NCBI GenBank assembly: GCA_964017145.1
Contig: OZ024841.1
Coordinates: forward strand, 3,410,001-3,474,000
DNA: 64,000 nt
Direction of reading: 5' to 3'
From: Agrocybe praecox
Lineage: Eukaryota; Basidiomycota; Agaricomycetes; Agaricales; Agrocybaceae
The number at the start of each line of letters is the position of its first letter. The stretch's first letter is position 1. The position numbers and the translations under genes are program-made. Shown here piece by piece: positions 32,463-64,000 of this stretch. The notes under the pieces were generated by a model. It was not told the origin of the DNA, did not search any database, and was given only the letters and a program-made list of their open reading frames with translations.

Positions 32463-32470
32463 AGGCACCA

Positions 32471-36815: not shown

Positions 36816-39800
36816 GCAATGACCATTGACAGAGTGAAGAGGTGTTGACTTTAGCGCCAATTCCACAATAAAAAAGACCCGCAACAACGCTAAAAAGTCC
36901 ATTGAGTCCTGGTACACATAGAGAGTCCCAATCACCATGCAAAGAGTGATATAAAATGGATCCGTCCTCATCCAGCCTCCAGTCGGGTTGTAAGACGCTC
37001 CGCCATTTCAGCATCTGGTCGACATAAGCAGAGGATGTGATAATGTTCGAGGGTGGGCGCCACGCTGAAGCCCGAGTGCACTGTATCCAGTCACGAATGC
37101 TACTTGGTCGGTGGGTGGTTTTAAGTTTCCAAAGACCCTTGTAATCGTAAGCGTGTTTGAAATCCATCCAAACCTCGAGTAAATGTTGCCATTGAGGTCC
37201 CAGACCCTCAGGTGCTTGCATCATTTCAAGCCCTTTCTTGAACTGAGGATTGGCGTTGGGATCAGCCTCCAAGATAGGCAATGAATTCCCTACAAGTGTG
37301 CTCGACGATGATGTCGTTGAGGTGCTCGAAGAACCGGAAACAGTTCTGGCAACAGTAGACGCGTGCAAACGGTGACGTTTGAGTGGAAGTGAAATTGACT
37401 CGTGCCCATCATCGTCTTTTCCTCTCTTTTTGCGGTTGCTCGTTTGGTTGTCACTCAATATCCTCCAAATTTGTTCAGCCTCTGAGGGGGCAGACGATAC
37501 TTGAGAACAAGTAATCAGGCGTTCAGCAGGTGGTGGTGAAGAAATGGACCGCGAAAGCAACGACACTGGAGGAGAGAGCTGAGCGGAGATAGAAGGGCTC
37601 AGAGAGGGCGCACAGGCAAGGGAGGGAATGTGAAACGGAACAGGAAATGGCATAGAAGACAACATAGACGAGAGACAACGGGAGACGATGCATGAGAGGG
37701 AATGCAAGAGGGCAAATGCAAGCGCATTGCTGTTGAAGTGGAGTCCTGTACAGCAGGCGGCGCAGACGATGGTGTAGGGGAAAGTGATGATGCTTGGGTT
37801 GGAACTGGTAATGTAGGACCGGGTAGTACTGCAGGTGCAGGTGATGGTGCAGGTGCAGGTGCAGTTGAAGTCGAAGTTGCTGCTGTAGATGAAGGAGGTG
37901 CTTGTGGCAAAGGAGCCCCCGAGTCCGACTGCTCGATAGCGTCAATAGTAGCACCAACACCCTCGATTTCTTCGAGATCCAACAAATGGAATCCATCGTT
38001 AGCATTTAGAGCACGGGACTGACACTCTTGTGGAGCTAGAGATAAAGAATATTGGAGTGACTATCGAAGAAAAAAGAGAAAGAAGAACGTACAGAAGCAC
38101 TTCCTCAAATATTCCCCATATATTGGTGCGATAATTCTCTTGTATCGCACGCACTCTGCCCAGCCGAAATTCATCCTAACATCACCTGTAGTTGTGCCGG
38201 AATGAATACTAGATAACATATGACTCAATAAGCAACGTCAAGGAGATTAATAAAAGTAACTATAACATACCTGACGATGTTTAGACGACCTCCATCTGCT
38301 GGTTCAGGTCCTCCTGTGAGAAGAGTCGCCTGCCATCTCGTGGCTTCACATAATAAATCAAGAATAGGCTGTACAAATTGTACAAGCCCTTGGATACACC
38401 TATGAGAGAATATATTGTAAGTCATCCAGTTAGAGAAGAAACAATAACGACAAACCTTTGTCTTTCAAGGGGCATCGTCGGAATCGGAGCCTTCATTTCC
38501 TTATCCCACTTCGTGACTGCGGCTGCCACCTGTAGCAGTCAGTTGACGTCTTCATATATGGTAGCTGCCAAACTATAAGCATGCATCCAGAATGGAATCT
38601 AGCCAGCCTGGCAGTTGCCAGTCTGATGTCCTGTAGATGGCTGTTAGCATGTGATAGTCATGTGATTTGGTGCACAGCCACCAAAAATCAAAGTTGTAGA
38701 GAAAAATTCAAAAGCTATGCTAAATATTTTTTATTACATAATCATCAACGGTTTAGCCATAAAACGCAAAATATCCGCGGAAAGCCGGATACAAATCAAA
38801 ATAAAAGATTAAAATATTCATAGCATGCTAAATATAAAATTTAAAATCATAAAAAAATGTGTACTATACCATTTTAGGCTTAAACTAACCAAATATGTAA
38901 AGTGTTCTAAAAATAGAACCGAGTTAAAAAAAGATCTGTTCTAAAAATAGATTTGATCTTATTTCGTCATGTCTTAGTTGCCATCATTATGTGTTGATGG
39001 GCCTTTATGCAAAAACCTCAAAGTCCAAAGTTCATTTGCCTTATTAAGGTATTTGGTTGTGACATCACTCAAGTTTTAAGTTGTTTGGTGTTTGGGTATG
39101 TTGGTGGCTGATCATTACTAATTTATTATTTGTTCGTATTTGAGGCCATAAAATTGTGGCTGTGAACCCTGAATGTGTAAATAGAGGCAAGCAAAAAGTC
39201 ATGCTTTTGATTTTGATGCAATCAGTAACAACCAGTCACAGCACATGACCAGTCAAGCGCATAGGCAGTGAAACATATAGGTCTGGCAACTGCCAGCCCA
39301 GGTAGGTACCGTTCTGGATGCATGCTCATAGTTTGGCAACCACCAATATATCATATAAAAATATGACTGCAGTGGCTGCAGCTGCATGCTCTTCGTTTGC
39401 CTGAAGATCCCAACTGTCCTGTTCCACGAGAGAAAGTTTTTTGAACATGTCCCTGGCAATCTTTTCTTGACGAACCGCAAACGCATGATGAGGCAATTTT
39501 TCCAGGGTGACCTGCCTCTTCAGCTCATCTTCGATTTCATTTCGATGTGTAACACGCCAAAGGTTGACTGGGGCCCTACGACGTGGACGAGATAATTGCT
39601 GGCCAGTGAGTTTGGAGATCAATATTCGAAAAGGATTATGGGCGCCAGACTCTTTGGGATCGAGGTCGTGATCTTTCATGTATAGGTAAGCCATCCATCG
39701 TTTGATTTGCTGTAGGAGCGAACAGTTGACGTCATAATTTGAGTGACAGTCACAACAAAACATACCGCTTTCCGGAATTCGACACGTCTCTTTCGCTCAT

Positions 39801-40079
39801 AACGCTTAGCGAGCTCGTCCTCGAAATCCTCTGGTCTCATCATTTCTTCGTTTAAAGGCTGCATTTCAACTTCTGGTGCATCGTCATCCACAGCGGTCAA
39901 GAATTCCTGTGAAGGTTCTTCGTCGTGTGGCAACTCTATCGGATATCGTTTGAAGTACCGGCGCTGAATTATGGCTAGGGCATCAGCAGCGTAACCACCG
40001 AGAACCCCTGCTGCATAGGCCTCTTCTCTCCGAGGAGAAACTCTTTTCGAGAACCAGCGAAAGAGCCAGGGTTAACCAT
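36816..40079 (-). pseudogene. KDZ cargo gene D, outer copy, heavily damaged
   Basis: Homologue of the gene at 58408-61127. Recognisable: start MVNPGSF at 40079, acidic N-terminus, exon KRWMAYLYMKDHDLDPKESG, the HMG-box-like stretch PVNLWRVTHRNEIEDELKRQ, PILDLLCEATRWQATLLTGG, a Pro/Ala/Ser-rich middle, a basic KKRGKDDDG and LKRHR region, and C-terminal FKKGLEMMQAPEGLG ... WRLDEDGS ... GLFYCGIGAK. Damage: one base lost near 40025 (frame lost after about 17 codons), an 852-bp MITE in the second coding exon (38527-39378), a frameshift between about 37600 and 37740, and loss of the last residues to the Gypsy LTR at 36816. Introns match the inner copy in position (for example GTATG...CTACAG at about 39765-39705). 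Confidence 0.82.
38527..39378. mobile_element. KDZ-type MITE 1 (in gene D exon)
   Basis: 852 bp with ends CACCTGTAGCAG and, inward from the right, CAGCCACTGCAG, flanked by the 7-bp duplication CGGCTGC (38520-38526) / CAGCTGC (39379-39385; one mismatch). The ends match those of MITE 2 and of the inner KDZ element, and the AT-rich interior matches MITE 2 in inverse orientation (for example TGCTAAATATTTTT...CATCAACGG at 38717-38752). No coding capacity; it must be moved by a KDZ transposase in trans. Confidence 0.85.
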
Positions 40080-40580
40080 ACTATGGTGTACGAGGTGAGT
40101 GATTATTCGGTATCAACGACAACAACGGCTTACATGAACAAGGATCCTCTATGTAGAAGTTATCGAGCAAAAGAAAGGCGTGTCAATCAATTCAATAGTA
40201 CGTCGCATACATTTTGTTTGCACCCTTGAGGGACTAATCTTGAGTTCGCTTATCTAGATCTCAAATTTTGTCACCCAACCAAAAATGAGGCCTTTTCTTT
40301 CTCAAACCATCGACTCATACAATTTAAACCGCCTCAGGGTTCTTTGACCATAATATTCCCATCCATTCTATACCTCATAAGGATAGCAAAGGGCCCATGG
40401 ATCATGAGTTCTCCGTTTTATTTCACTTAAACAAAACCATATAAAAACAGTACAACCAGACCCTCGAAATTATCAGCTACGCTACGATGCAAATCCCAGT
40501 TCAACTCAACTCTCAACCATCCTCTACTGCACCACCCACCCATCATGCCCCTGCCACCGCTGGGGGCCAATCTCAGGCCA

Positions 40581-41525
40581 CAGCCAGTGCAGCTATAATT
40601 CTATATCAAATGTAGGCAGTTTGCTAACCCACGTGATACATCCAGGTAGGCAATTTGCTACCTGCCTTTTTTGGAAAGACCTTTGGCTGGCAGGCCTATT
40701 GTGACTATTTGTGACTATAGTCATGTGTCTGATATTGATGGCATCAAAATCAATGCGCATGACTTTTTGCTTGCCTCTATTTACATGTTTAGGCTCCACT
40801 CATATGTTTATATGGCCTCAAATACAAACAAATAAAAAATAATGATGTCAGCAGGCAGGGGCAGGCCTGATACAAAACAAACAAATCCCTTGAGTGACAT
40901 CACATCCAAACAACCCAATAAGGCAAGAGGACTTTGGACTTTGAGATTTTGTGATAAAGGCCTTTCATGCATGATAGATGGGACTAAGACATGACCAAAT
41001 AAGATCAAATCTATTTTTAGAACGGATCTATTTTTAATTCTATTTTCTATTTTTGGAAAATTTATGTATTGAGTATGTAATGCATGTATTTATAGCCCGA
41101 AGCTATTTTTAGAACACTTTGCTTAATTAGGTAGGTCAAGCCTAATATAGTATAGTACACATTTTTTAATGATTTTAGGTTTTTTTTTTCAGCTCACTAT
41201 GAATATTTTAATCTTTTATTTTGATTTATACACAAGGTTCAAAAAGTATTTTGCGTTTTGTGATTGATCCGTTGATGGTTATGTAATGAAAAATATTTAG
41301 CATGATCCCTGAATTTTTCTCTACGCAACCATATAATTTTAGTTTTGGTGGCTGTGCACAAGTCACATGCCTTATATCACATGACTTCAGCCTACCGTCA
41401 CCTATAGTCACTCTTATAGGTGTTAGGACATCCCAAAGCGGAAGGTAGCAAAGTGGCCTCCAGGATGTATCACTAGGTTTAGGCAGTTTGCTACATTTGA
41501 TATATAAAGGTAGCTGCTACAGGTG
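40581..41525. mobile_element. KDZ-type MITE 2 (in viroplasmin-like gene exon 1)
   Basis: 945 bp, ends CAGCCAGTGCAGCT and, inward from the right, CACCTGTAGCAGCT, flanked by a perfect 7-bp duplication CAGGCCA (40574-40580 and 41526-41532). About the first 110 bp at each end (including GCAGTTTGCTAACC / TGATACATCC) match the outer ends of the inner KDZ element's terminal repeats, but the GC-rich inner part of those repeats is absent. Interior AT-rich, homologous to MITE 1. No coding capacity. Confidence 0.9.
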
Positions 41526-42126
41526 CAGGCCACTGTTACTCAACTCAACGAAGGCATGATGGCAAATAATGTTGAACAAGGTATGTCTTAAATCTTTATC
41601 ATCTCATTATGTTTCTCAATCTTCCCATTCAAGGACCTGCACCACCAAATGTCGCAGTCGGTCGTAAGTTTTTTTATTTCTTATTTCAGATGTTAGCTGA
41701 CCTATGTTGACAGATCGCGATTTCGCTGGTCAGCGTGTCAGTCTCTACCATTCTAATCATTCGGCAATCCAAGCTCCAAGTCCTGCAAATCTCATACAAC
41801 CTCCTGTTTCTCCCTTCGGACCGAGCTACTACGTCGTTACATCCGGTCAAGAGGTGGGGATATTCGAAGCTTGGTAAGCTCTTTTTTTTAAATTTCTCGT
41901 TGCACGATCTCATTGGTCAAACGTATTGAATAGGACTATTGCCCATCTTCCATTGGCAAATTTCAGGCACATCACCTATTCAAGCTTCTTCACTTGGCCT
42001 GAAGCGCTAACATATTACACTCGAGAGTTCAATTCCGGCAATATTATAATTGAACAACTAGTTTTCTCTGAACCACGTCAATCAGCACAAGGACCCCAAG
42101 TCACTCTTACCCCTCCAGTAGCGCTG

Positions 42127-42354
42127 GGGAACTCTCTTTCTTCTACCCATACCTTGGCTCACATAGTTTTGCCAGGCGTTGCTGCTGCTTCAGGGTCTGT
42201 AATGGCAGCACCATCCAGCAATGCAAACCCAGTAGCTCCGGGGAACTCTCTTTCTTCTACCCATACCTTGGCTCACACAGTTTCGCCAGGCGTCACTGCT
42301 GCTTCAGGGTCTGTAACAGCAGCACCACTCAGTAATGTCAATTCTTCTGGATCT
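42127..42354 (+). repeat. Tandem 114-bp (38-codon) duplication
   Basis: Two in-frame copies starting GGGAACTCTCTTTCTTC at 42127 and 42241, encoding the GNSLSSTHTLAH unit of the viroplasmin-like protein. Not present in the inner copy of the gene. Confidence 0.85.
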
Positions 42355-43443
42355 GAAGAAGACCCCATTTACGTTTCTTCTACCGCCCCCACCCCTGCAC
42401 GCCTTGGAACGTCGGGGATGCCTATTCCCATCATGTCAAGAGGTAACACACCCATTGTGTGCCATAGGCATAGGCCGCAATCTTTGCATACCGCAAACGT
42501 TCTAGCCAGTCGAGGTTCCAGGAATTCCCCACCCTCTCTTGAGAATAACTTTGCCCCTGACACCAGCAGCTCAACTACTCAAAGACAGAACCCACATGTT
42601 GTTGTTGTTGATGAATCAGACGATGAACGTCTTGATTTTCTTCCATCATACCGTGATGCTATACCCCCATCGGCTCTTACTCGTCCGCATTTGCCACCTT
42701 CCTCTCCTCTTGGTCGTGCTACTGCCCGCAGCATTCGGGGCACACGTAATGGGATTGTACCTTCTTTTCGTGTATCCAATACTAATTCAACTTCCAATGC
42801 CAGTTCAGGGGTTGTCGGTACTTCACGTAGACCACCGGCAGTAGCAGAAGAAGAATCTATTGCTAGCTCAGGGCTCTCTGTGAATCCGAGCAGAATACTA
42901 GCAGCAGTTGATGCTGCCATGCCCAGCACCCAAAATTTGGTGCCCCCAACATCATCCACTCTTCCCTCGCTTCCATCATCTCCGTTCACCTCCAGCACCC
43001 CACTGCCACGTCCTTTTCCCTTCAACCCACATACACCCATCACTCCTGTGCGAGAATCTCATCACTTTTTGCCCCTTTTCCCTGATAGCTCACCTGATTC
43101 AACAATGGAAGAAATTGATTGGCAACTCCGCTTGGAAGCAAGCTACCGACGATTTCTGGTAATTCAGGCTTGTTTCAATAAGGACAAGGAAAGTTCTATG
43201 GACATCGACTCAGACCTAATTAGCCCAACCCCCTCTCCTTCCACTAGTCAAATTGCCGAATTGTCCACTAGGATTTCCTTCAATCCAACCCCCAAATTTC
43301 GAAGCATTGAAGAGGAAGGATCTGACAGTTCGGAATCTAATTTTAGCAACATTGTTGACTTCACCGAAGAAGAATATAATCAAGTTTACGACGCGCTTCA
43401 AGATCCTGACCCCAACAACAAGGGCAAAGGCCGACAGCTCTAG

Positions 43444-44606: not shown

Positions 44607-45754
44607 TCATTTGCGTTCGTACCGTTGGAAGAGAGAAAGCCCAAATTTCCACAGTGTTTTGTTCATCAACTCATCCATGACGGCCTGAAAACTTACTGGA
44701 GGCAAACCCAGCAAGACGTTTGAAGCATTCCATCCCATTAAGCTTGTCCCATACCTCATGGTTATGCGGTGAGTTTCACAGTGTTTGAGGCAATTTCTGG
44801 CCTCCCCCATGTGAGATACCGCATCGAATGTTAACGAACCGACCGCGGCGATTTTTTCTGAGTTCCTTCTTCGATGCGTGGCATCAAAGACGACGTTCTT
44901 CGAGAGCGGACGCGGCAGTTTTGTGTAGAGTTTCCCAGTTGCTGTCAGACGGTTTCCCAGCACAAACACCAAAGATTGATTTATTCGCATCTAGAAGGGG
45001 CATTGTAGTCCTGAAAATAGATATGGTTAATACATGTACTGCTAGGCGTAGGCTGGCATCTAAGGACTTACCTGCCATCCCATTTTTGAAGCTTAAACCC
45101 ATATCTAGAACCTTCGCCTACTACTTTATCAAGAGTATACGTTCCAGAGTTGCGCGAATGATCCCTTGCGCCCATGAAACCCGTCGAATTGGATTTCGAT
45201 GCACTGTTATCGAAAGTCGTTGATATTGGATTTGAGTTCTTGAGATGTTGTTTGGCGTTGGCAGCCTTGACAATATTTGCAGTTTCAACTTGGGAGCTTC
45301 GAGCAGCCTCTCGTTTGCGCCTATGATTCTCATGCGACTGTTTCTTTTGCCATGTTTTCTTACTCGTTGCGCTTTCGCCTTTTTGTGCTATATGTGGATC
45401 ACCGGTGGAAGAGGAGGGGTTGCATTTGGGTGACACATTATTGAATGATTGAGGTACGTCTTGAAATTTGTCCTCTGGGTTTGTAACGGTGAGTGATACG
45501 GGGGTGGATATGAAGGGTAAAGATTTGGAAGTTGAAGTGGGTGTTGAGTCCGGCGTTGTGAGAGGCGAATCACCGAAAGCTTTCATTGCTGCATTTTCAT
45601 CATCTCCTCCATTATTTTCCTCGGCGTCGGAAGTTAGAGGGGATAAGCTGAATAGATATTCGAACACATTTAGCTCGAGAGTAACGGAAGCTCTGAGCAA
45701 GTTATGAAGGCTGAATTCGGGGTGGTTAACAACTAGGGGTGTAGCATTTTCCAT
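44607..45754 (-). pseudogene. KDZ-associated TET/JBP-like dioxygenase, outer copy, catalytic core deleted
   Basis: Homologue of 53071-54710. Exon 1 (45072-45754) is open: VVNHPEF and YLFSLSPLTSD at the N-terminus, a basic region (SHENHRRKREAA), and YTLDKVVGEGSRYGFKLQKWDGR. A 61-nt intron (45011-45071) is followed by FGVCAGKPSDSNWE and ALEERR, then TGA; a later in-frame TGA follows ISHGGGQKL. At about 44685-44693 the sequence passes from the end of FKRLAGFAS and its splice donor directly into the extreme C-terminus (FQAVMDELMNKTLWKFGLSL). The missing segment holds every catalytic residue (HxD, distal His, 2-oxoglutarate-binding Arg). It cannot be an active oxygenase. Confidence 0.85.
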
Positions 45755-46130: not shown

Positions 46131-48208
46131 ATGTCCAAGTCGAATGTCCAAAGCTCGAAAAGACAATGTATCAGTGTTGGTAGTGCTTACCGCAACCCTA
46201 TCCCGCTACAGGACGATTACTCGCTGATTCATATTCGGGAAGGACGTCTCCGACGACTTAGAAATAATGTGTGAACAGCGCAGCCTGAACGTACACCTCA
46301 GCACCTGTTAGGATCTTGGAACGATATTACCTTGTGGGCTCCCGTAGACAATCCAGATTATGCTCTAGATGAGGATGGAAACAGATACGATGAAGAAGTC
46401 GAGGCGTCAGTAATGCAAGAACCAAAAACCAAGGTCAAAAGAGTCAAGACCTTTTTAGCTGTAAGATAACATCAATTTTATGAGCTGGATCGTATCACAA
46501 CGTACGCTAACTATGTATTTAGAGGCGTCCACACGTAGTCTGGATGAATCTACATTGACAGGCGTATTTGGACGAAATGTTGCGCTGGGAAGGACGCGGT
46601 GATTTTATGCATAACAATAGTAGATGCTCTGACTGTCTGGCACGCGCTGTGGAGACACCTGGAGCTCCAGAATTCCGCTGTGAAGAGTGCTTCATGCCAG
46701 ATATGGTCTGCAGGAGCTGCTGTTTGAAACGCCATCATAGCCAGCCATTTCATTACATTCAGGTGAGCCTTTACTCAACTATTTGATATTTCGCACTAAT
46801 ATCATTGATTATGTAGAAGTGGGATGGAACTAAATTCAATCGTGTTACCTTGAAGGCGCTTGGTCTGAAAATTCAACTCAATCACTCGAGTCTATACTGC
46901 GACAATCCGCTGCCGTGCCACGAAAAAATGCTGATCCTACATGTTAATGGCATTCATGAAGTCGCAGTGCTTTATTGTGGCTGTACGCGTGCCATTCCTC
47001 CCCATATCCAGTTACTTTGTCGCCGGTTATACCCTGCCTCTCAGGTCCTAGTCAAATGCTGCGCATCTTTTGAACTATTGGAACTACTGCACAAATTCTC
47101 GTTGACTACGAAAGCCTCTACCTACGACTTTTATCGTGCGCTGGAAAAGAGCACGAACAACCTGGGAATTTCAGTACCAACTTCTCGATACAAGGCGCTC
47201 CTTCGGATGACTATTCAATGGCGTCACTTGAAGATGCTCAAGTGGGCCGGGCGCACACACGACCCTACTGGAGTAGAAGGAACCAAGCCTGGAGATTTAG
47301 GCATTCACTGTCCCTCTTGCCCCATTCCAGGAGTTAATATACCCAATGATTGGAGGAACACCCCGCCGGAAATGCAGTAAGATTTTTCAACTCATTGATT
47401 GTGTGTAAATTGATTGATCTCGCGCGTAGATTTCTTTACATGATGGTGCTTTGCATGGACGCAAATTTCCGGCTCAAGAACCAACTTGTCTCTAATTACT
47501 CTCAAGACCCTGGCTTGGGCATTGGTTGGGCGTACATGGTGCCTAGAGTACCTTACGAAGATTATGTCCTGAGTAGGGCAGATGACGCAGATGTAAGCCC
47601 AACCCTTTCTTGACTGGCGATTTTCTTATGGCTGCCAGTGAGCTTACTCAAATTGTGCAGATTAGCACCTGTGTTGGCTTCCAAGCGCTTGCCAAAGCCA
47701 ACACGAAATTCTCCGTCGGTTTACGATACACAGGGGTGAATATGGTTACATGTGGGCGTTCCGAGATGATTATGCCTCTTGGAGTTGGAAATTTACAAAA
47801 AGGCGAAAGGTAAGATAATTATTGGCGTGTTTTCGTGTTCGTTTGGGTTCTGAAATGTCTCACATTAGATACGCAAACATGGACTATGTATTCGCCTCCG
47901 TTCTTCAACGGGTACTGGTCCCCTTGGTATTGATCAGCTATGACATAGCCTGTCAGTGGTTCGTAAATATATTCAAACGAATGAATGAACACTGGCCGGA
48001 AGAGCTCAAAATACCCGACACAATGAAGCTCATCCCTGCCATTCCCAAATTGCACGAGCCCATGCATTAGACCACGGGTCATCAAGTCTTTCCTTTGAAC
48101 TACATACCTGGAGTTGGTTTAGCCGACTGTGAATGTCCCGAGCGTGTTTGGTCCCCTCACAATCCCCTCGGGAACGCCACCAAATCTCAGGCCCCAGGTT
48201 CACAACAA
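46131..48208 (+). pseudogene. KDZ transposase, outer copy, 5' part
   Basis: Exons 46131-46460, 46523-46762, 46817-47376, 47430-47592, 47661-47809 and 47869-48208 (exon 6, cut by the inner element). Exon 2 encodes the CxC2-like cysteine cluster (CSDCLA ... CEECFMPDMVC ... CCLKRHH); exon 3 the KDZ-specific region (HVNGIHEVAVLYC, ASTYDFYRALEKS, RHLKMLKW); exons 4-6 the RNase H-fold catalytic part with candidate Asp in VLCMDANFRLKN, Asp in ISYDIACQWF and Glu in CECPERVW. In-frame stops at 46272-46274 and in exon 2 (just after WMNLH, about 46559) and in exon 6 after LHEPMH (about 48068). The inner copy has sense codons at all three. Exon lengths 2-5 agree with the inner copy to the base or codon. 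Confidence 0.9.
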
Positions 48209-52720: not shown

Positions 52721-53070
52721 AAGTATAGCCAAGGATTTATTCAAAGATAGAGTGACGAAATACCTTACTGGTAAGTTGTGTTTATCTATTAATATCACGT
52801 CACATGGTCGCGCGGCGATGCATCAGAACTTGATTGAAACTACGCGCGTCTTACCCTTTCCATGATATCCTTGGTTCCATACTAGATTCTTCAAACCCAC
52901 CTTTTGAGGTAAGTCCCTTCATCATCTTTCCTCCTGTTTATCCACATGGATGGTACGCAATGTTAGGAATCCTCGCACACGGGGATACACTGCATACAAC
53001 GCACCGTTCCACCTCATTTTGCCTGCCTTTTAGAACTGACGTATGATTTAGGAAAACTAGAGACTCAGAT
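52721..53070. promoter_or_regulatory. Divergent promoter, inner transposase and TET/JBP genes
   Basis: 350 bp between the two start codons. The head-to-head arrangement is kept in the outer element, suggesting co-expression of transposase and dioxygenase. No TATA box is clear. Confidence 0.5.
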
Positions 53071-54710
53071 ATGAAAGAAGACGCACCTGTCGTCGTAAAC
53101 TACCCAGGATTCGACTTTGCATCGCTCATGCACGCCGCCACAAATCGCGAACAAGAAGAATTCGACGCCCTTTTCAGTCTTTCACCTTTGACCAGCGCGG
53201 ATGAATGTGAGGGAGAGGTTGGGGCGGAAATCTCTCTATTACCAGGTACGTCCGAGTCGCTATTCAAAATTTTACTACTACTTTGACTAATTTATAGCCC
53301 TCCATGTCTAGCTCTTGACGGAAGTTTCAACGTTCAAGCCACTCCCCAACCTTGCTCTTCCAAATCACCAAATCCCAATAAACGACCAGTACCAGACGCG
53401 TTTCCTGAACCACTCCCCAGCGAACCAGACTCACGCAGAGCTAAGAAACGAAAACAATCTCACAATAACCGAAACAAGAAACGGCAATTGCAGCGGGAGG
53501 ACGTGCGGACCACCAACACCGTTAAAAAGGCAAACGCGCAGAAACACCTCGAGAACTCAAAGCCGGCACAGCTCATTTTCGAACTGGATGAGAAGAAAGC
53601 CGTCTCCACTGGTTACACAGGGCTCAACGATAAGCACAAGTCCTCCGTTCAATACACATTGGAAGAAGTCGTCGGGGAAAATTCTGAATTCAAGATGAAG
53701 CTGCTGAAATGGGATGGAAGGTACGTCTGCTCATTGATGTTCCCTCGCCGTATCTTCCTTTACCCGTTACAGGACTGTCGTTCCACTTCTTGACACCGAG
53801 GGAACCGTGTTTGGCGTGTGTGCCGGTTGTCCCTCTGACCCAAACTGGGGGGATATTCACCGATCTGCCGCCTCCGCCCTCGAAGAGAGACGCGATCGCT
53901 GCCATTCTCCTCCGAAAGAACGACAAAAAAATCGACGAGGACGCTGGATGAAGGTCCGCTGTGGGGTGTCGCACGGCGGCGGCCAGACGAGGCCCATGAA
54001 CCTAAAAAACTCAAGTCGCAACCAGGCCGTAATAAATGAACTTAATGACATGGAACCTTTCAAGAGATTGGCCGGCTTTGCTTCAAGTAAGTAGCACCAA
54101 TTTCGTCTCATTTGTTTATACCCCATATCTATGCTAATACCTACCTATCCCAGGCGTCATGGCTACCTGGGCTCCTGATCTTCATGACCATTACACCAGC
54201 ACCCTTTCCAGTCTTTACGAGCACGACGGGGATTTAACCCGGGACTTCAAGACAAGCATCCTTCCTGGTACTACCTACAACATGGGTCCCCAAGTCGTAT
54301 GCCTCAAACACTACGACTTCAATAATCTTTCATTTGGATGGTGCGCAATCACCGCCCTAGGCGCTTACGACCCAACAAAAGGCGGCCATTTGATACTGTG
54401 GGACTGTGGCCTGGTGATAGAATTCCCCCCAGGATCCACCATCCTCATACCCTCTGCCGTCATTGCCCATTCGAACACCCGCATCGCTCCTGACGAAACT
54501 CGATATTCCTTTACCCAATACACCGTGGGCGGACTCTTTCGATGGGTATCCAACAAGTTCATGAAGGCGGAGGTGTACCGTGCTTCCCTCACACCGTGGC
54601 AGGCTGTGATGGAAGAATTAAAGGATAGGACCCGGTGGAAATTCGGCCTTTCACTCCTGTTAAAGTATCCAGGGCAATGGCAAGCAGAGGGGAGGAAACG
54701 AAGCCTATAA
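53071..54710 (+). CDS. KDZ-associated TET/JBP-like 2OG/Fe(II) dioxygenase, intact
   Basis: Exons 53071-53245, 53312-53720, 53773-54086, 54154-54710 give 484 codons with every junction in frame. N-terminus VVVNYPGFDF and ALFSLSPLTSADE is shared with the outer copy; then a basic, nuclear-signal-like stretch (RRAKKRKQSHNNRNKKRQ, about 125-145). The TET/JBP region begins with FGVCAGCPSDPNW, then CGVSHGGGQTRP, RLAGFAS and SILPGTTYNMGP. Catalytic double-stranded beta-helix: Fe-binding HYD (His352, Asp354), GAYDPTKGGHL, FPPGSTILIPSAVIAHSN with distal His405, and 2OG-binding Arg416 in ETRYSFTQY. The family oxidises the methyl group of 5-methylcytosine (TET) or thymine (JBP); fungal members tested have TET-like activity. 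Substrate here is inferred. Found in transposons of this class in agarics, so the genomic setting supports the call. Confidence 0.9.
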
Positions 54711-56023
54711 CACAGTACAACATAAGTTAGTCTATAAATAGTTTTTCCGCGCGTGGTGATTTCGTTTTTTGGGTGCAAAGTTTTGTTGCTTTTGGGGACG
54801 ACATATTGTATATTTAGCATTGAAATGGTGTTTTGTTACAAGATAAAGTTAGTACAATGCCTACGATATGAGTTTGAGGGAGGGATAAGTGGTAAACTAA
54901 AGATATATCTCGAATTCCTTGTTTTTAATGAAACTTTACTTTGTGAGACGGCCTTGGGTACCCAAACGATATATCGATGTCACACTTTTCTTCAAATCAA
55001 TGATAACACCGAGTATAAAATCAACTATAGAAAGAATTCTCTCTTTTCTATGATTATCTCTTACCACTCTGGTACTGAACAGCATTGAAAGTCCCCCTAG
55101 TATGGTGAACTCAAACTATTTATCTGACCGTGGTTATTTTTATTTTCATTCGGTAATATCTTTCGGGGTTAGTATCATACACTATTAATACATTGATAGA
55201 GCGCTTGTCCGCTTTCTTGCTAACTGTCACCATCCCTACCTAATGCCTCCAACAAACAGTCCCACTCCCTTGAACACGAATGCCTCAAGACGCGAGATTT
55301 ATTTACGGTATGAATCATTCGATGCACGGCCAACTACATACACATCTAATCGAAGTTCAAATATTTAGCAATATTGAACGAGAGCGTCATACATCACTCG
55401 ATAGAGCTCGAAGGAGCAAAGCAAAGCGCTCGGGCGAGATTGAAGTCGCTTTCAAAGAACGACACCGAGAAGCACAGCGACGCTATCGCGAGTCGAACAG
55501 ATTAAACCTCAAAACCAAGTCATGGGGGTATCGGTAGGCCCACCTTTTGCTTCTTAAAGACATATTTACTGAAACTACCCATAAGATTGGCAAAGAAACG
55601 AGCTTCACAGATATTGGCAGACAAAGGAGAATACCTGGAATTGATGGCGATGGCGCTCAAAGAGGATTAGTTTGTCAAGTATCAGTTGGTGAATACTTCT
55701 TCAGTAGTCAAATACTAGTAGTCTCGGAGCTAAGTACTTTGAAAATTTCTTGCATTAGTGGATGTTCAGTCATTGTTGCCCAATAAAGTATTTATTCTCG
55801 TTAAGGGCCTACAAAAATGTGCATAATATATATATGATGTGCCTAAATCAGTTCAAAGCTAATGTGGGAATGTACGTTAAAAAGAGTAATTAATGTGTGG
55901 ATGTACGTTAAAGAGAGTAATAGAGGCATATAGGCGAACATAGAGGCATAGAGGGTTCCAGCATTTATGTACAAATCATACCAAGAATAAGCGATGTGGT
56001 AGAGATCGAATACCGTGTACTAT
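54711..56023. other. Convergent 3' intergenic of inner element
   Basis: AT-rich spacer between the 3' ends of the dioxygenase and viroplasmin-like genes. Apart from the small frame at 55280-55537 it holds a short direct repeat (TGTGGGAATGTACGTTAAAA / TGTGTGGATGTACGTTAAAG, 55861-55915) and nothing else I can assign. Confidence 0.6.
55280..55675 (+). pseudogene. Small Arg/Glu-rich ORF, possibly decayed
   Basis: An 85-codon frame (55280-55537) with ARRSKAKRSGEIEVAFKERH and REAQRRYRESNRLNLKTK, a charged helical composition seen in many small agaric hypothetical proteins. The theme appears to continue in another frame at about 55562-55673 (LPIRLAKKRASQILADKGEY, then stop), which would need a frameshift. 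No counterpart recognised in the outer element's equivalent spacer. Could be a gene fragment carried by the element; function unknown. Confidence 0.3.
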
Positions 56024-58010
56024 TTAGCGCATAGGAGCCTTGCCTTTTCTGGTTGAATCGAGCATTTGAAGAGAAGCGTACAATTCATCATATTCCTCTG
56101 GCGTCAACTCTGGAAGGTTGTCAAATTCTGACCCTGACGAGTCAGATCTATGATCCTCTTCATGCGTTACAGTTGGAGTAGTGCCCAGAGCAGAGTGAGA
56201 GAAAGACTCTGCAAGCTGACTAGTAGACGGCAGGGAAGGGGTTGGGCTAAGCACATCATCGACATTCATACTGTCTTCGAGATCATTGAAGCATGCTTGG
56301 ATGGTTAGAAACCGACGGTAGCTGGCTTCCTGCTTGAGGTATGAATCAATATCGGGAGATGATGGAATCGGAGAACTTTCAGGGAAAAGTGGCTGGAAAT
56401 GGCGTCCTCTATTCGCAGGGGTAGGGGTAATTGGTGTACGTGGAATAATCGGGAAAGGTCGTATAATTGGTGTGCTAGTTGCTTGCAAATGGCCTGTGCT
56501 AGCAGACGGGTTTCGAAGGGAAGACCCTTCCATGGCGACGGTCAATTGATTCTGGGATCCGAGTGATTGGCCTGGATTAGTAACAGCAGCGTCGACTGCT
56601 GCCAAAATTGCGCTTGTGGTGCCGGAACTTCTGGAGGTGGGATTGGAATACGAGACAGGATATCGTGGACCCCGTCCTTGCAGTGATGCAGCGTTACGTG
56701 TTCCTCGAACACTGCGTGCACTAGCTCGGCTGAAAGGTGATGCCAGTGGTGGTGGTGGAGAGGTCCGATGGTTGTTTCTGGAGGGGTAAGAAGGGAGGTA
56801 TGCCAACCTTTCGTCGTCTGATTCATCAATCACGACGACACGTGGATTCTGCCTACGCTGAAATGTTCTCTGACTCGGAGCTGGAGTATCTGGAACCAGA
56901 ACTGCTCTACGACCCTGTTCAGTTGAGTTGGCAGCCCCTTGGCTAGTATGGTGACCTGAGGGTATTTCGATAGCACCAGAAGCCTGTGAGGTACGAGATG
57001 GATTGGTTACGAGTTCGAATCTGACCCTGCGCGATGCGGCAGGATTGTTATCCGTTGAAGTCACAAAAATAGGTCTTGATTGTGCGCCGGGACGAACGGG
57101 AGTTGGATCGGTAGAGTGTACCTCAATAGGTTTCTCTGCAGTTCCACAATCAGCAATACGAGCAGCCAGGTTAGCCCCAGATGAACTAGTGGAGATCGCA
57201 GCTGAAACAGCAACAGCTGTAGTCCCAGCAGGAGCTTCGACCGAGGTAGCAGACTGGGAAGGAGCAGAGCCAATTTGGTTTGCTTGCTGGAGTGGTTGGG
57301 AAGGTGCAGGGCCGATTCGGATTGCTCGCTGGAGTCGTCCGGTTACGTTCCCTCTGCGAATTCTAACCTTGTCGGCATTGAACTCCTGCTCGTAAAATGC
57401 CAAGGCCTCGGTCCAAGTGTAGAAACTCTCGTACGAGAGCTGACCAAAATTTGCCAGGGGAAGATGGGCGACCATCCTATTAAGTTATGAGATCCATTGT
57501 CAGATGAATTTCGTAAATGAAAATTTTAAGAAACTTACGATGCTTCGAAAATCCCGACTTGTTGGCCAAAAATGATGACGTAATAACCTGGACCAAAAGG
57601 CGCAGTGGGTGTGGGTATCATATCTGCAGGGTTTGGTGGTTCGATTGCCGAATGGTTGGTGCTGTGGGTTGACCCATGTGGAACGTGCATGCAGCGATCT
57701 GTAGAAAAAAATAAGTGGGTTGACCTACGCGAGAAATAATGATGAACTTGCCTGGCACTACTAAAGCAGTTGATGGTTGACGGTGAGTTCCTGGAAGTAT
57801 GAGTTCAAAAAATACACATAGCAGAGAAGATATCCGCGACCTACCAACGGTGGTATCAGAACTGTTGACTGCCGCTGATGCGACGATATTGGTTGCACCG
57901 TCGGAAGGCATAGCTTCCGCCGCCGAGTTATCGACGGTGTCATGGGCAGTGAGCATTTCAGCGGCAGAGGACGAGATGAGTTGAGACTGAGTTTGTTTGG
58001 TGAGTTGCAT
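56024..58010 (-). CDS. KDZ cargo: viroplasmin-like domain protein, inner copy
   Basis: Exons 57845-58010, 57752-57790, 57539-57698, 56024-57476: 605 codons, open. The second intron starts with GC (GCAAGT), a minor but regular donor. Residues about 105-150 form an RNase H1 N-terminal/viroplasmin-like domain: GYYVIIFGQQVGIFEAS, an intron, then LSYESFYTWTEALAFYEQEF. In RNase H1 this domain holds RNA/DNA hybrid or dsRNA; there is no RNase H catalytic domain here. The remainder is Ser/Thr/Pro/Ala-rich with islands conserved between the two copies (VVVIDESDDERLAYLPSY; SYRRFLTIQACFN; ELTPEEYDELYASLQ), the last being acidic. Divergent to gene D with 397 bp between starts. Role in transposition unknown; nucleic-acid binding is a family-based inference. 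Confidence 0.82.
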
Positions 58011-58407
58011 GTTGGTTAATTTGGGTGATGGGTTAACGATCTGAAGTGCAGGCTTTTATGTCAATTCGGTTATCTTTGAAAAAGGCGAACTCACGGCTGT
58101 AAGACCCTGTTCGCGTTTAGCTAATTGTGGGTAGAGCATCGTGTAGTATATTGAGGTGGATAATGAGACGACAATTCCATTTTCTTTAATCCATATTTCT
58201 GATGCTTGATGCATGCCTTTCGGACCTCTCATAACGGGCGATCTAGATCGTGAATCGGGATAAAAACAAAGACCAAATAGTCGTTTGACGAGTAGCCAGA
58301 AGTTTCCTTTCTTGTGTCTTAAATTTCTATTGGCTGAAAATCCCAGTTTACGCGTAAGTATCGCAGTTTTCAATGCACGACGTATAACTCACTTGTCGGG
58401 TTACAGA
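58011..58407. promoter_or_regulatory. Divergent promoter, viroplasmin-like gene and gene D
   Basis: 397 bp between start codons. Upstream of gene D a non-coding 5' exon and intron are likely (GTAAGTATCG at about 58350, GTTACAG at 58406); the outer copy also has an AG acceptor just before its ATG. Confidence 0.45.
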
Positions 58408-61127
58408 ATGATGAACCCAGGCTCTTTCAAAGGATATCGCAAGGAATTCCTTCTTTCCGAGAAGGAGGCGTATGCAGCTGGGGTCCTAGGTGGTTATGCA
58501 GCTGATGCGATTGCGAACATTCAGCGTCGCTATTTTAAGCGATTTTCTATCGAGTTGCTGCACGAAACCGAGCCTACGCCAGAGGATTTAGCTAATATAG
58601 ATGACAATTCCCCAGAGCAAGAGCCAGAGCCAGAGCCAGTCAACGAAGACTTGCTTAGCCCAGATGATTTGGAGAGGGAGGTGCTACGACGACTCGACAG
58701 AAGGAGGTTGTTGGAATTCAGAAAAGCTGTGCGTCATTATGTGACCATCATGACTTGTGATGAAATGACGTCTGACCTTTTGATTTCTAGCAAATCAAGC
58801 GTTGGATGGCCTATCAATACATGAAGGACCATGACCTTGACCCTAAAGATTCTGGCGCTGAGAATCCCTATCGAACACTAATCTGCAAACTTACCGGCCA
58901 ATTGAATCCTCGTCCACGTCGCAAGTCTGCCGTGAACCTTTGGCGCGTATCTCATCGCACTGAGATTGAAGAAGAATTGAAGAGGCAAGTCATCGCCGAA
59001 AGCTTGCCTCGTCGCGCCATCGCTGTCCGTCGCGAGAAGATTGCACAAGATAAATTCAGGTCACTGCGAATGGTGGAGCAAGAGGGATGGGAAACACAGG
59101 CCTCGGAGGATCATGCCGTTGCTCTCGCCAAGTGGGAATGTGAAATGAAAAGCCCGCTTCCAACGACTCCTGAGGATAGACAAAGGTATGTTCCTGTCAT
59201 AATGGATACCGGCTTCACTGACCTCCTTGGGTAGATGTATTCAGGGACTTGTGCAATTTGTACAGCCCATCTTGGATCTTTTGTGCGAAGCTACTGGATG
59301 GCACGCTACGCTCATCACAGGTGGACCCGAACCTGCGCACGGTGGACGTTTGAACGTCGTTAGGTGTGTTTTGGAGATTTTTTTACTTGATCGTTAATCT
59401 GCTTACCTTCTTTTCACTTCTTAGTGTTCATTCAGGAACTACCAGCGGGGATATAAGGATGAACTTTGGGAGAGCGGAACGCGCGCGATATAAGAGGACC
59501 ATCATGCCAATCTATGGCCAATATCTAAAAAAATGCTTTAGTAAGTTTCTTTCAGCTATATTCATGTACCTCAAGCTTACTATGATTCTTTTTAGCTCCT
59601 GCTGAATGCCAGGCACGAGCGTTGAATGTTGAAGAGGGATTCCCCACACTGGATGCAGCCGAAATAGAGGAGGCCGGTGCAACCACCGACGTAGTCGAAC
59701 TGTCAACGCCAACAGACGAGCAGCCAGCGTCAGCTGCTCGGTCTTCCTCATCACAGGAGAGAGACACCGGCGCGTCAAATGTGGTGTCGGTCGTGGAAGC
59801 GGAGACCCCCAGTTCAACACCAAACATATTACCAATTGAAGGTCTGGTCGATGGCACCGATCCTTTGTCGGTGCTGTCCTCCAACGGCTCTCCACTCCCA
59901 ACACCCTCACCAGTACCTTCCAATTCATCAGCGCAGCCACCTTCGTGCCCTCGTGCGCCTTCTCCATCACCCTCTGTCCTCCCAGCTCCCCATTCTTCTC
60001 GACACTCCTCGGATCCTTCTTTACCAGTACCTTTCAATTCATCAGGGCAACCACCTTCGTGCCCTCGTGCGCCTTCTCCAGCATCCTCTGTCCTCCCAGC
60101 TCCCCATTCTTCTCGACACTCCTCGGATCCTTCTTTACCAGTACCTTTCAATTCATCAGGGCAACCACCTTCGTGCCCTCGTGCGCCTTCTCCAGCATCC
60201 TCTGTCCTCCCATCTCCCCATGCTTCTCGACACTCCTCACCAGCTGGAGAGGCTCCAAATGCATCACCAGCTCATCAGCCACCGCCTATTCTACATGAGC
60301 AGAACGACTTACCACGTACGCAAAACCCCTGTCGACCACCTCCCCAGATACCTCGCTCTATCCATTCTTCCAACCTACCTCCTGCTAGCGAAGCACTGGC
60401 AGGGCCTCGCAATTCGGACATCGTACCCCCTTCGTTATCTAAACGCGCCAAGAAGAGGAAAAATCAGGAAAAGGAGAACAAATTGGAGAACACAAGTCGG
60501 CTCAGGGACGTACCTCCATCCAAACGACGTCGTTCAAGTGCCAATACTTTGAGCACCCTATCCGCAAATTCAACGACAACGACATCTTCTTCGATTACCC
60601 TCGTTTCTGACGAATTGGATTTCGTGCAAGCTGCCCAAGATGCAAATGTTTGGTTTAAAAAGGCCTTGGAAATGTTTCAAGCCCCAGAGCGGCTCGGGAA
60701 ACATTGGAGGGACCTCCTACAGATATGGGCAACATTCGAACATCGTCATCAATACAAAGAAGTCAAGAGATTGGGGGTCACCAATCGACCTGCCTGTGTA
60801 GGGGACTGGATCCAACGTGCTCGACTTCCAACGTGGCGTCCACCTATCAAATCCATATCAACCAACGCGTACACAACCCAGTTGCTCAAGTGGTGGACGT
60901 TCTTGCAACCCGAATGGAGGCTCGACGATAGCGGATGTATTGATTTCAGCTCGATGGATGGAGAATGAGAGCCACTACGTAGACCCGGCCTCAATGGACT
61001 TTGCAGCATAGTCGCTGCACTGTTTTATGGAGGCATCGGGACGAAGACTAATTTGGCTGCTCATACGCAGTGGTTGTTAGTGGTGGAGGACTTCATTGCC
61101 GTTTGTTCTCATCTAGTAGGTAACTGA
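58408..61127 (+). CDS. KDZ cargo gene D (basic, Pro/Ser-rich, HMG-box-like), premature stop
   Basis: Exons 58408-58728, 58791-59185, 59235-59363, 59425-59540 and 59596 onward, all joining in frame. A TGA at 60966-60968 ends the protein at 777 residues; the outer copy has a Trp codon there, and homology here continues 53 codons further to a stop at 61125-61127. Features: acidic N-terminus; KRWMAYQYMKDHDLDPKDSG; a segment of about 75 residues (SAVNLWRVSHRTEIEEELKR ... REKIAQDKFRSL ... WETQASEDHAVALAKWE) that resembles an HMG box; a Pro/Ser-rich region with three 38-residue repeats; basic stretches SKRAKKRKNQEKENK and PSKRRRSS; and a conserved C-terminal domain (FKKALEMFQAPERLGKHW ... WTFLQPEWRLDD). 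Probably nuclear and DNA- or chromatin-associated; function not established. Confidence 0.78.
59934..60275 (+). repeat. Three tandem 114-bp repeats in gene D
   Basis: Units start at 59934, 60048 and 60162 (CARCCACCTTCGTGCCCTCG) and encode PSCPRAPSPASSVLPAPHSS-type 38-residue repeats. The last unit is truncated. Period exactly 114 bp, in frame. Confidence 0.92.
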
Positions 61128-61370
61128 TTCTTTCTATGACGGGTATTATACTTCTATTTTATATCATAACTTCCTTATACTTCGTCTATCATTGCTGCTT
61201 TACTTAGTATACCTAATAATCTTGTCCCTTGTTCAACGAAATGAACGAGTAATAAAAGAATTTTTGCAAAGAATTTTATATGTTTTGGAAAGAAGTACCA
61301 AAATGGCAATAAGTGCTGAATAGGGAACTACCGTCTAAAACATATGCTAAAGGTCGGTTTTTTTTTGGGG

Positions 61371-61848
61371 TATCTAATCTAATCTAGAGATATGTATGTA
61401 AAGTAAATATAGTACAGAAAAATGATCATATCATTATTAAAAATAGTGCAGCGGCCGAAATTGTAAAAATACGCTAAAAATAACACGTCATCCACTTTTA
61501 TATCTTGCAATCCATCCCGTCCCGCTCTCTTTTGATGGCGCAAACGGTGCCAAAAAATCAAAATATATTCAGCCAATATATATCCGCCTTTTCCGCGCCC
61601 CGAACAATGCCCGACACAGCGCAGGGGCCCAATTTCAGCGGCGGGCACCTCGGGGACGCTGTTTCCGGCGCTGTTTACACGTGTTTACTTGTGCCCGCCC
61701 CCTGTGAGCAGCCCCGGCACACCCGGCAGTGTCTCTCCCTCAGAGGGGAGGTGTCCGAAAGCGGAAGGTGGCAAACTGCCTACCAGGATGTATCACTAGG
61801 TTTAGGCAGTTTGCTACATTTGATACATGAGACCAGCTGCTACAGGTG
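61371..61848 (-). repeat. Inner KDZ right terminal inverted repeat
   Basis: Partner of 48209-48690. The first base inside the element's right end lies at 61848; inward it reads CACCTGTAGCAGCTGG. The outermost 8-10 bp are not perfectly inverted relative to the left end (CAGCC versus CACCT), an asymmetry also seen in both MITEs. Confidence 0.9.
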
Positions 61849-63578
61849 ACGACAAGATGTTCTCGATGACCATTTTGGGTGGTGGAATTGGCAGAAATAT
61901 ATTGGAATGGGCAAAACACTTTTACGAAAGTACAGGATGGCGGTCGCGGAGCGAAATAGACAAGTTGAGGCTCATCGAAGCCTGACCGAGTCTGTTCAGA
62001 AGATCAACAAGGACATCATTGTACGATGGGAGAGGCTATGTGTGCTGTGGGACACCGATTCATTCCCTAAAATGGCCAGGAATCCGTATCATGCTGAAGG
62101 TGTTGGTAAGTGTTATTTTGACGCCCACTATGTCTATTCGGTTGACATTTATACATATCCTTCTAGGTATCACAGAAGCCGAAGTAAAGAAACAACTAGC
62201 AGACGAAGAGAAGAAACGGATCGATGCCAGTGGCGTTTCAATCCACAATACCAGTGCATGGTCCTTTATCTCCCTTGCTCTCGACTTGGAGGAAATTCAG
62301 TGCGTAATATAACAAACATTTATTTTGAAACCGTGAGTTAACGATTGTATATAGGCATTGACTACGTAAATTATCAAAAGAGGTAGACGCAAAAGCCACG
62401 ACACGCAAAGAGGGCGGTTTACTAGAGCAGCGCAACATCCTCCGTAGTCGAATCAGGGCATGGCAGCACCTACTGCCAGTTTACATGCCTGGTATTGTCC
62501 AATTTGAGGCCAACCTCGCGGTCCAGATTCACTCTGACAACCCGGAGGACACAATCCTATGGCTTCCATCGTGTGTTCCCTTCTCCAGTCGGGACATGGT
62601 GTGTGTGCATGGTTTGGCCAAGATGGAAGAGAAACTGCGCGATGCACAGCTTCAGGATTCGTTGGACAGTTTGTGCCGCACGCTTCGGGTCAAGAGTCAG
62701 ATGATTCAATTCAAGAACAAAAATATACGTGGTCAGAGAGGTGGTACCCGATCTCGAACAATGATCGATCGAGTTCATGACAAGGCAAGGGTTTCTGTGG
62801 AAAAATATCTGGCTTCAAGAACTGCGAAACTCGCATTGGCTGGAAACGGAGCATGGGAGAAATATTATCGTGTACTCGAAGATTCCGACGTTCGTGGATA
62901 TCAGGACCCCGATAAGCTGCATACACGTACTGGTCGTCAAGGGATCTGGGAGGACGAGCAAATACTCCAGCGCGTATCCGACGCACCTCTGACAAATCAA
63001 CCATCTGACTTGGAAAGCAACAACTTCCTTTTGAATGAGGTTTGCGACCGACGAGATGGAACTGGCGAAACTCGACGTACATTGTCGTGGATATGGCTCT
63101 CATCAACTCTGACGGAGTCGGACAATATAAATAACAACAACATTTTGTGTGTTGAATGGAGTAAAAGTCGGGCCAGAGCAACCAGAGCAAAGGAAGAGGT
63201 CCTTTTATTGCAGGAGGAGATGCGACGAATTTTGGAATACTTAAATTGGAAGTCACAATGGTGGACAAGTCGTGTATCCTCTCGAACAGATGTTAAGGGT
63301 GACCTAGCCGAGGGCAACAAAGGGTATGCTCTCTCCCAGGCCGAAATTCAAACAAGTCTTGCAGCTCATTTCAGAAAGCTTTGGGCATCGCCGTTGAACG
63401 ATATTGTCATTCTGACCAAGAAGAGAATGAACCCTTCGGAAATAGCATAGATGCCGAAGAAAATGGAGGTGTTCACGATGACGATGATGACAATGAAGAT
63501 GATGATAACAACGACAACGACAACAGAAGCCTGCTAGAAGGAGGCAATATAGAATTGGACTCGGACAACGAATATTAA
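61849..63578 (+). pseudogene. KDZ transposase, outer copy, 3' part
   Basis: Continuation of exon 6 (61849-62105, beginning with the second copy of the duplication), exon 7 (62167-62299) and exon 8 (62355-63578). Exon 6 resumes at RQDVLDDHFG and WNWQKY, matching the inner copy. A TGA occurs seven bases into exon 8 where the inner copy has Arg (RRLRK), and a frameshift near 63400 separates the main frame (ending 63450) from the acidic tail (DDDDDNEDDD, stop at 63578). The rest, including MIQFKNKNIRGQRGGTRSRT, is open. Confidence 0.88.
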
Positions 63579-63682
63579 CGACGAACATGGCCCTCTGCGT
63601 CGATGTTATTTTTCCGTTTTTGTTTTTATTTTTTTCGTTAGTTATCGTCCTTATATGGCATTAGTTCCCATATTTGGAACAA

Positions 63683-63708
63683 CATATGTAAATCTAGATT
63701 TACATATG
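63683..63708. repeat. Perfect 26-bp palindrome
   Basis: Half-site CATATGTAAATCT followed by its exact reverse complement, 105 bp downstream of the outer transposase stop. Could form a hairpin in RNA or bind a dimeric protein; may equally be a relic. Confidence 0.8.
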
Positions 63709-63829
63709 ATTATCTAATCTTTTTATCCAATCAATAGTACCAAGGCACATGAAATAGACCTGCCGAGATTTTCTGACACGGCCAAACAATGTAATTTTGA
63801 GTAACTATTAATAACGCAGCGGCGTTCTA

Positions 63830-64000
63830 TTTTTGAACATCATCCAAAAACATTCTGTCCAATCCATCCCACCCCCGCCATAAATGATGGCGCTCTCACC
63901 GGAAATGGATGTAAATATATTCATAAAACATGTTTGCGCTTTTTCTGCGCCCCAAATGATGCCCGACGCAGCGCAGAAGCCCAATTACAGCAGCGGGCAC
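63830..64000 (-). repeat. Outer KDZ right terminal repeat (partial)
   Basis: Aligns with the inner element's right terminal repeat at about 61470-61645 (CAATCCATCCC, GATGGCGC, TATTCA, GCGCCCC, ATGCCCGAC, GCAGCGGGCAC) with clear divergence. The window ends inside it, so the element's true end and its duplication are not visible. Confidence 0.8.

What the first reader, a model, noticed from the sequence alone, without database searches (positions are those of the whole stretch)
36816..64000. Two copies of a four-gene KDZ transposon with a TET/JBP gene and two undescribed cargo genes
Seen: both elements carry transposase, TET/JBP-like dioxygenase, a viroplasmin-like-domain protein and gene D in the same order and the same two divergent pairs, although one copy is much more decayed. 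Known: KDZ transposons and TET/JBP genes are associated in agaric genomes. Inference: the other two genes are also functional parts of the mobile unit rather than passengers, since order, orientation, intron positions and protein islands are kept in both.
Basis: partly seen in the sequence, partly recalled or inferred. Interest (0 to 1): 0.9.

Follow-up and report, generated by a model that had tools for sequence, protein, structure and literature searches.

The report
Four-gene mushroom transposon nested in relative
This mushroom DNA holds a 13.6-kb jumping gene that moved as one block with four genes (a transposase, a predicted DNA-demethylating enzyme, a viroplasmin-domain protein and a predicted HMG-box DNA-binding protein) and landed inside an older relative; relatives across the genome suggest that the last two genes are likely standard working parts, while the demethylase appears optional.

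Summary
The two elements are not side by side: element B (48209-61848; CA..TG ends, flanked by ACAACAA/ACGACAA) sits inside the transposase gene of older element A. B has a 99% identical second copy elsewhere in the genome, and homology stops at exactly the same two bases, so all four genes moved together. A lacks recognisable ends, and its TET/JBP gene lacks the catalytic core.

Of 62 viroplasmin-gene (V) loci, 60 lie within 10 kb of a listed KDZ, TET/JBP or D match; 51 of the 52 near D are head-to-head with it. V and D are under purifying selection and diverge in step with TET/JBP. V also occurs in three elements without a detected TET/JBP gene.

D is predicted to contain an HMG box. A divergent HMG protein in KDZ elements is recalled from Iyer et al. 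2014, which I could not read, so D is probably not new. I found no description of V as a KDZ component. A 2014 Pleurotus paper may describe the same unit as 'captured' Helitron genes.

The parts
48209..61848 (.). Element B: complete 13,640-bp KDZ transposon unit, ends CA..TG
   Evidence: 99% identical copy at C3:53719-68480; homology begins and ends exactly at these bases
48202..48208 (+). Left target-site duplication, ACAACAA
   Evidence: 6 of 7 bases match the right flank ACGACAA
61849..61855 (+). Right target-site duplication, ACGACAA
48227..48786 (+). Left long terminal inverted repeat of B
   Evidence: 82.7% identical to 61274-61830 inverted
61274..61830 (-). Right long terminal inverted repeat of B
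48895..52720 (-). KDZ transposase gene of B (8 exons modelled; frame broken at an A-run at the end of exon 1)
   Evidence: PF18758 E 4.5e-33; exon model; A-run compared
53071..54710 (+). TET/JBP-like dioxygenase gene (T) of B, 4 exons, open; H.D, H and R invariant in 14 aligned copies
   Evidence: model; PF12851 Tet_JBP in 8 of 14 copies at E up to 1, best 5.5e-05, but not in the window's own copy; invariant columns
56024..58010 (-). Viroplasmin-domain gene (V) of B, 4 exons, open, 605 aa
   Evidence: model; PF01693 19.1 bits, just below the cut-off of 21
58408..60968 (+). Gene D of B, 5 exons, 777 aa; stop codon where relatives have W, so the last conserved stretch is lost
   Evidence: model; sequence; homologues
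58896..59153 (+). Predicted HMG-box-like domain of D (about residues 143-228, by alignment to homologue P0007)
36931..40079 (-). Gene D of element A, interrupted by inserted sequence between about 38.55 and 39.35 kb
   Evidence: tblastn pieces; repeats
41740..43431 (+). V gene of element A (ORF 41878-43440)
   Evidence: 38% identical to B's V, one stop in the matched stretch, which spans an intron
44619..45754 (-). TET/JBP remnant of element A without its catalytic core
   Evidence: matches B residues 1-300 and 448-471 only, with stops
46523..48208 (+). N-terminal half of element A's KDZ gene, cut by B
61850..63408 (+). C-terminal half of element A's KDZ gene
63913..64000 (+). Remnant of element A's terminal repeat (continues to 64069 beyond the window, then homology stops)
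40581..41525 (.). 945-bp non-autonomous derivative with the same ends (CA..TG) and an exact 7-bp duplication CAGGCCA, inserted between A's V and D

Best explanation
Element B is a complete Kyakuja-like KDZ DNA transposon that moved as one unit with four genes (transposase, predicted TET/JBP dioxygenase, viroplasmin-domain gene V, predicted HMG-box gene D) and inserted into the transposase gene of older element A; V and D are likely conserved working parts of this transposon family rather than passengers. Shown: exact ends, duplicated target, a second copy with identical boundaries, recurrent order and orientation across the genome, purifying selection, and co-divergence of T, V and D. Inferred: KDZ cuts and pastes at the long inverted repeats; D would bind and bend element DNA through its HMG-like box to help assemble the transposase complex; T would oxidise 5-methylcytosine on element DNA; V would act as a mostly disordered adaptor, transcribed divergently from D, that recruits host factors to keep the element active. 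The SUMO- and WW-binding-like motifs and acidic tail seen in part of the V family suggest this. TET/JBP looks optional: V and D also ride in elements where no TET/JBP gene was detected.
For: Unit mobility: boundaries and second copy; C3:4055864-4069524 with exact 7-bp duplication ATATTCA and a 945-bp derivative with exact CAGGCCA. Association: V 60 of 62 near a listed KDZ, T or D; 51 of 52 V-D pairs head-to-head; D 57 of 80 near KDZ, and of those 57, 41 have V and 32 have T within 10 kb; of 11 PF01693 loci over cut-off, 9 lie within 6 kb of KDZ or D. V in 21 of 24 examined elements (A, B, 18 T-D intervals, 4 T-less intervals). Selection. Co-divergence: T-D, V-D and V-T r 0.94-0.95, 0 of 5,000 permutations as high. 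D fold; weak sequence support. V domain: PF01693 above cut-off in 4 of 9 spliced N-domains scanned. V motifs, by patterns chosen after seeing the sequences: SIM-like in 6 of 17 V last exons (shuffled mean 0.6, max 4), PPxY in 10 of 17 (mean 2.6, max 7).
Against: No functional data. Neither 99% identical copy has all four frames open: KDZ and D are broken in B; KDZ (insertion), T (stop at codon 245) and D (stop at 507) in the second copy. Young pairs have few changes and some ratios near 1 (V 0.92 for B against its second copy, 3 synonymous and 8 non-synonymous; T 0.92 for L016/L021). Seven of 80 D loci and 2 of 62 V loci have no listed partner within 10 kb, although lists were cut. Two of 11 PF01693 loci over cut-off are far from any listed KDZ, T or D. 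The HMG match is fold-level with middling Z, one of its four rows at 8.4 A; Pfam HMG_box only at E 0.037 or worse in 3 of 15. The SIM-like motif is absent from 11 of 17 V sequences. V was not found in other species' proteins. Three of 24 elements have no recognised V. Near-identical pairs among the elements raise the correlations.
Confidence: 0.8

Rival explanations
1. V and D are passenger host genes caught between the ends, with no role in the element.
For: Transposons can carry captured genes (recalled); near-neutral ratios in the youngest pairs.
Against: Recurrent order and orientation across diverged subfamilies, purifying selection and co-divergence. D matched 80 loci, 73 of them with KDZ, T or V within 10 kb. 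The strongest PF01693 locus, C1:3348200, is far from KDZ and was not among the listed hits of any of the five V queries.
Confidence: 0.06
2. V is a suppressor of RNA silencing, working like the caulimovirus viroplasmin protein that shares its domain, while T counters DNA methylation: a two-armed anti-silencing kit.
For: PF01693 domain above cut-off in 4 of 9 V N-domains; the caulimovirus protein suppresses RNA silencing (PMC5734791, start of abstract seen).
Against: No domain match in 2 of 9 N-domains. In the C3 relative the basic residues of the RNase H1 domain are mostly not kept (alignment; that they bind nucleic acid is recalled). Outside the domain no relation to the viral protein was seen.
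Confidence: 0.15
3. D and V act mainly on the host, for example as domesticated chromatin regulators.
For: Eight of 80 D loci have V but no listed KDZ or T within 10 kb, and seven have none.
Against: Multi-copy and mostly element-linked; cut search lists can explain lonely loci.
Confidence: 0.05
4. The HMG-like fold of D is a generic helical match and D is not a DNA-binding protein.
Confidence: 0.15

Closest known systems
TET+ Kyakuja DNA transposons of Agaricomycetes (Kojima 2025, PMC12730594; parts 1-5 of 7 read, figures and supplements not seen)
   Same: KDZ transposase plus TET/JBP gene, CA..TG ends, 7-bp target duplications
   Different: Long inverted repeats here (the two Laccaria families are described as having none); V and D are not mentioned in the text read; V-D elements without a detected TET/JBP gene exist here
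KDZ elements with a divergent HMG-domain protein (Iyer et al. 2014, PNAS; abstract recalled, paper not held)
   Same: D is predicted to contain an HMG box and is linked to KDZ and TET/JBP
   Different: Sequences could not be compared; I recall no viroplasmin gene in that abstract
Large helpo1.3 Helitron copy of Pleurotus ostreatus with capD, capE, capF (PMC4289320, passages)
   Same: 10.7-kb extra segment with inverted repeats flanking capD and capF; capD UL36-like (probably a proline-rich match), capE PF01693 viroplasmin, capF RNase H-fold putative transposase: looks like D-V-KDZ
   Different: Authors read it as captured genes in a Helitron; not sequence-tested here; figure not seen
VANDAL/VANC anti-silencing system of Arabidopsis (PMC10398659, abstract)
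   Same: Transposon-coded proteins that lift silencing of their own element
   Different: No sequence relation claimed; a working analogy only

Membership tests
KDZ superfamily transposon | KDZ transposase domain | tested here: met
   PF18758 E 4.5e-33, 115.2 bits against cut-off 26.6
KDZ superfamily transposon | Defined ends with target-site duplication | tested here: met
   Exact boundaries from two copies; flanks match 6 of 7, 8 of 8, 7 of 7 and 7 of 7 bases in the four insertions examined
Kyakuja lineage (as in PMC12730594) | 7-bp target duplication and CA..TG termini | tested here: met
   CA..TG in 4 of 4; 7 bp exact in 2, 6 of 7 in the window, 8 bp in one
Kyakuja lineage (as in PMC12730594) | No terminal inverted repeats (stated for the two Laccaria families) | tested here: not met
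   About 560-bp inverted repeats, 82.7% identical; so called Kyakuja-like, not filed as a member
Kyakuja lineage (as in PMC12730594) | Transposase groups with Kyakuja rather than Zisupton or Dileera | not tested
   No reference transposase sequences were compared
TET/JBP dioxygenases | Tet_JBP domain with H.D..H and R | tested here: inconclusive
   PF12851 in 8 of 14 copies, best 5.5e-05, not in the window copy; H.D, H and R columns invariant in 14 of 14; no PDB match; structure model poor
RNase H1 N-terminal / viroplasmin (PF01693) proteins | PF01693 score above curated cut-off | tested here: met
   Met for the family: 4 of 9 spliced N-domains above 21 bits (up to 37.2); 3 between 18 and 20, B among them at 19.1; 2 no match
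HMG-box proteins | HMG-box fold | tested here: inconclusive
HMG-box proteins | DNA binding | not testable with these tools
   Needs a binding assay

The most novel reading that the evidence does not exclude
V and D form the ancestral accessory core of an agaric KDZ lineage: an anti-silencing and assembly module, with V a viroplasmin-domain adaptor that hooks host SUMO, ubiquitin or RNA-silencing machinery, to which TET/JBP was added later as an optional third arm; orphan viroplasmin-domain genes of mushrooms (their abundance is recalled) would then be transposon parts.
Probability: 0.25. Interest if true: 0.75.

Novelty: new variant of a known kind. Interest (0 to 1): 0.55.

Why it matters
The papers seen here on these fungal transposons centre on TET/JBP. 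In this genome the viroplasmin gene and the predicted HMG-box gene are at least as constant: of 57 D loci near KDZ, 41 have V and 32 have TET/JBP within 10 kb, and V and D persist where no TET/JBP was detected. They may be what the element cannot do without. If so, this gives a likely origin for orphan viroplasmin-domain genes of mushrooms, offers a simpler reading of 'captured' genes in a Pleurotus Helitron, and makes the question of what KDZ accessory proteins do testable in a laboratory mushroom.
Full report
WHAT IS THERE. The window lies at G000:C2:3410001-3474000 of a 59.2-Mb genome that is held without a name. The 58 proteins found for its D gene come from Agrocybe, Pholiota, Galerina, Gymnopilus, Psilocybe, Mycena and similar mushrooms, which I recall as all Agaricales. 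Self-comparison, ORFs and exon models give two related elements. Element B runs from 48209 to 61848. On the + strand the order is KDZ (minus), T (plus), V (minus), D (plus): KDZ/T and V/D are divergent pairs, with 350 and 397 bases between their modelled starts, and T and V converge. The exon models are by eye and have no transcript support.

B IS A UNIT THAT MOVED. A second copy at C3:53719-68480 is about 99% identical, and the homology begins and ends at exactly 48209 and 61848. The C3 copy differs by about 0.8 kb inserted in KDZ and a 207-bp stretch present twice. Both have CA..TG ends. Flanks are ACAACAA/ACGACAA in the window (6 of 7) and CGGGGGAG on both sides at C3. A diverged relative at C3:4055864-4069524 (13,661 bp) is flanked by ATATTCA on both sides, and a 945-bp derivative with the same ends inside element A by CAGGCCA on both sides. 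The outer parts of B (48227-48786 and 61274-61830) are inverted repeats at 82.7%.

B SITS IN A. B interrupts element A's KDZ gene: the match stops at 48208 and resumes at 61850. A's right repeat homology stops at 64069 and no left repeat was found; a Gypsy LTR element abuts at 36816. A's T lacks the part that corresponds to residues 301-447 of B's T, which hold the catalytic core. A and B are diverged relatives: V 38% identical, synonymous sites saturated.

ASSOCIATION. In this genome KDZ gave 137 merged loci, D 80, T 59 and V 62. The KDZ and D lists were cut (176 and 217 matches found, the rest not listed), so lonely loci are overcounted. V came from five protein queries. Of 62 V loci, 52 lie within 10 kb of D, 44 of KDZ, 36 of T and 60 of any; 51 of the 52 V-D pairs are head-to-head. 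Of 80 D loci, 57 lie within 10 kb of KDZ, 47 of them in the divergent arrangement. Random placement gave means of 3.8 (V near KDZ or D, max 11 in 1,000; observed 59) and 3.8 (D near KDZ, max 10; observed 57). Random placement ignores clustering of repeats, so the recurrent orientation is the stronger evidence. D neighbours within 10 kb: KDZ+T+V 27, KDZ+V 14, KDZ only 11, V only 8, T+V 7, KDZ+T 5, T only 1, none 7. PF01693 itself gave 28 matches at E up to 1; of 11 loci over cut-off, 9 lie within 6 kb of a listed KDZ or D and two (C1:3348200, C3:2533105) are far away. About half of the KDZ loci stand alone: 67 single-KDZ clusters, before the later V queries; these were not examined.

V IN INDIVIDUAL ELEMENTS. 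Of 18 fetched T-D intervals a V profile matched 13. Reading frames added L017, L024 and L028 (N-domains of L017 and L028 at 19.0 and 18.4 bits, below cut-off). Of four fetched KDZ-D intervals where no T was detected, three (L030, L031, L033) have V, at 37.2, 33.6 and 26.7 bits. With A and B, 21 of 24 examined elements have V. L025 and L032 share a different small protein in that slot, and L026 is unresolved.

SELECTION AND CO-DIVERGENCE. In pairs with dS about 0.76-1.3, T gives ratios of 0.10-0.12 and D exons 1 and 2 0.07-0.19; the D C-terminal piece gives 0.17-0.27 with two pairs at 0.56 and 0.69 among very diverged sequences. V gives 0.22-0.26 without column filtering (four pairs) and 0.10-0.34 with filtering; five of those alignments read out of frame give 1.13-1.72. 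Young pairs have too few changes to judge, and some are near 1 (T L016/L021 0.92, V B/C3 0.92). Distance matrices of T, D and V correlate at 0.94-0.95 over 16-19 elements, with 0 of 5,000 permutations as high; near-identical pairs in the set raise these values. KDZ was not included in that test.

LITERATURE. Kojima 2025 (PMC12730594; parts 1-5 of 7 read; figures and supplements not seen) describes Kyakuja with TET/JBP, CA..TG ends and 7-bp duplications; its text has no occurrence of RNase, HMG or viroplasmin. Iyer et al. 2014 is not held; I recall its abstract as mentioning additional proteins including a divergent HMG domain, which fits D. [quoted passage not shown] I found no paper tying viroplasmin to KDZ (listings only). 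PMC4289320 (passages) reports in Pleurotus ostreatus a 10.7-kb segment with complementary repeats flanking capD (UL36-like) and capF (RNase H fold, putative transposase), with capE (PF01693 viroplasmin); the long copy is an allele of a short Helitron copy. I suggest that this is a D-V-KDZ element inserted into the Helitron; this is inference, not tested.

VERDICT. The unit, its nesting and the constraint on V and D are shown. The roles of D, T and V are predicted. I put D as DNA-binding at about 0.5-0.6, V as an adaptor that protects the element at about 0.25, and V as an RNA-silencing suppressor at about 0.15.

Noticed in passing
window 30368-36816: Gypsy-type LTR retrotransposon with LTRs 95% identical, abutting element A's left side; no matching flanking duplication at the BLAST boundaries.
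   Followed up: partly
window 38648-39230 and 40730-41383: The interior of the 945-bp derivative is 70% identical, inverted, to a stretch inside A's D gene, so a second related insertion probably split D.
   Followed up: partly
L025:1308-1808 and L032:5274-5705: In these two elements an unrelated small protein (shared at E 6.2e-14) occupies the slot of V.
   Followed up: partly
G000:C3:55571-56374 (L009): The second copy of B carries an 804-bp insertion in its KDZ gene whose ends look inverted to each other by eye.
   Followed up: no
G000:C1:3348200-3348382 and C3:2533105-2533173: PF01693 matches far from any listed KDZ locus; the first is probably the host RNase H1 gene, not checked.
   Followed up: no
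Pleurotus ostreatus helpo1.3 (PMC4289320): Genes described as captured in a Helitron look like a D-V-KDZ transposon nested in it.
   Followed up: partly
window 48241-48252, 48275-48286 and 61803-61814: 12-base motif TAGGCAGTTTGC twice near B's left end and once near its right end, a candidate binding site.
   Followed up: no
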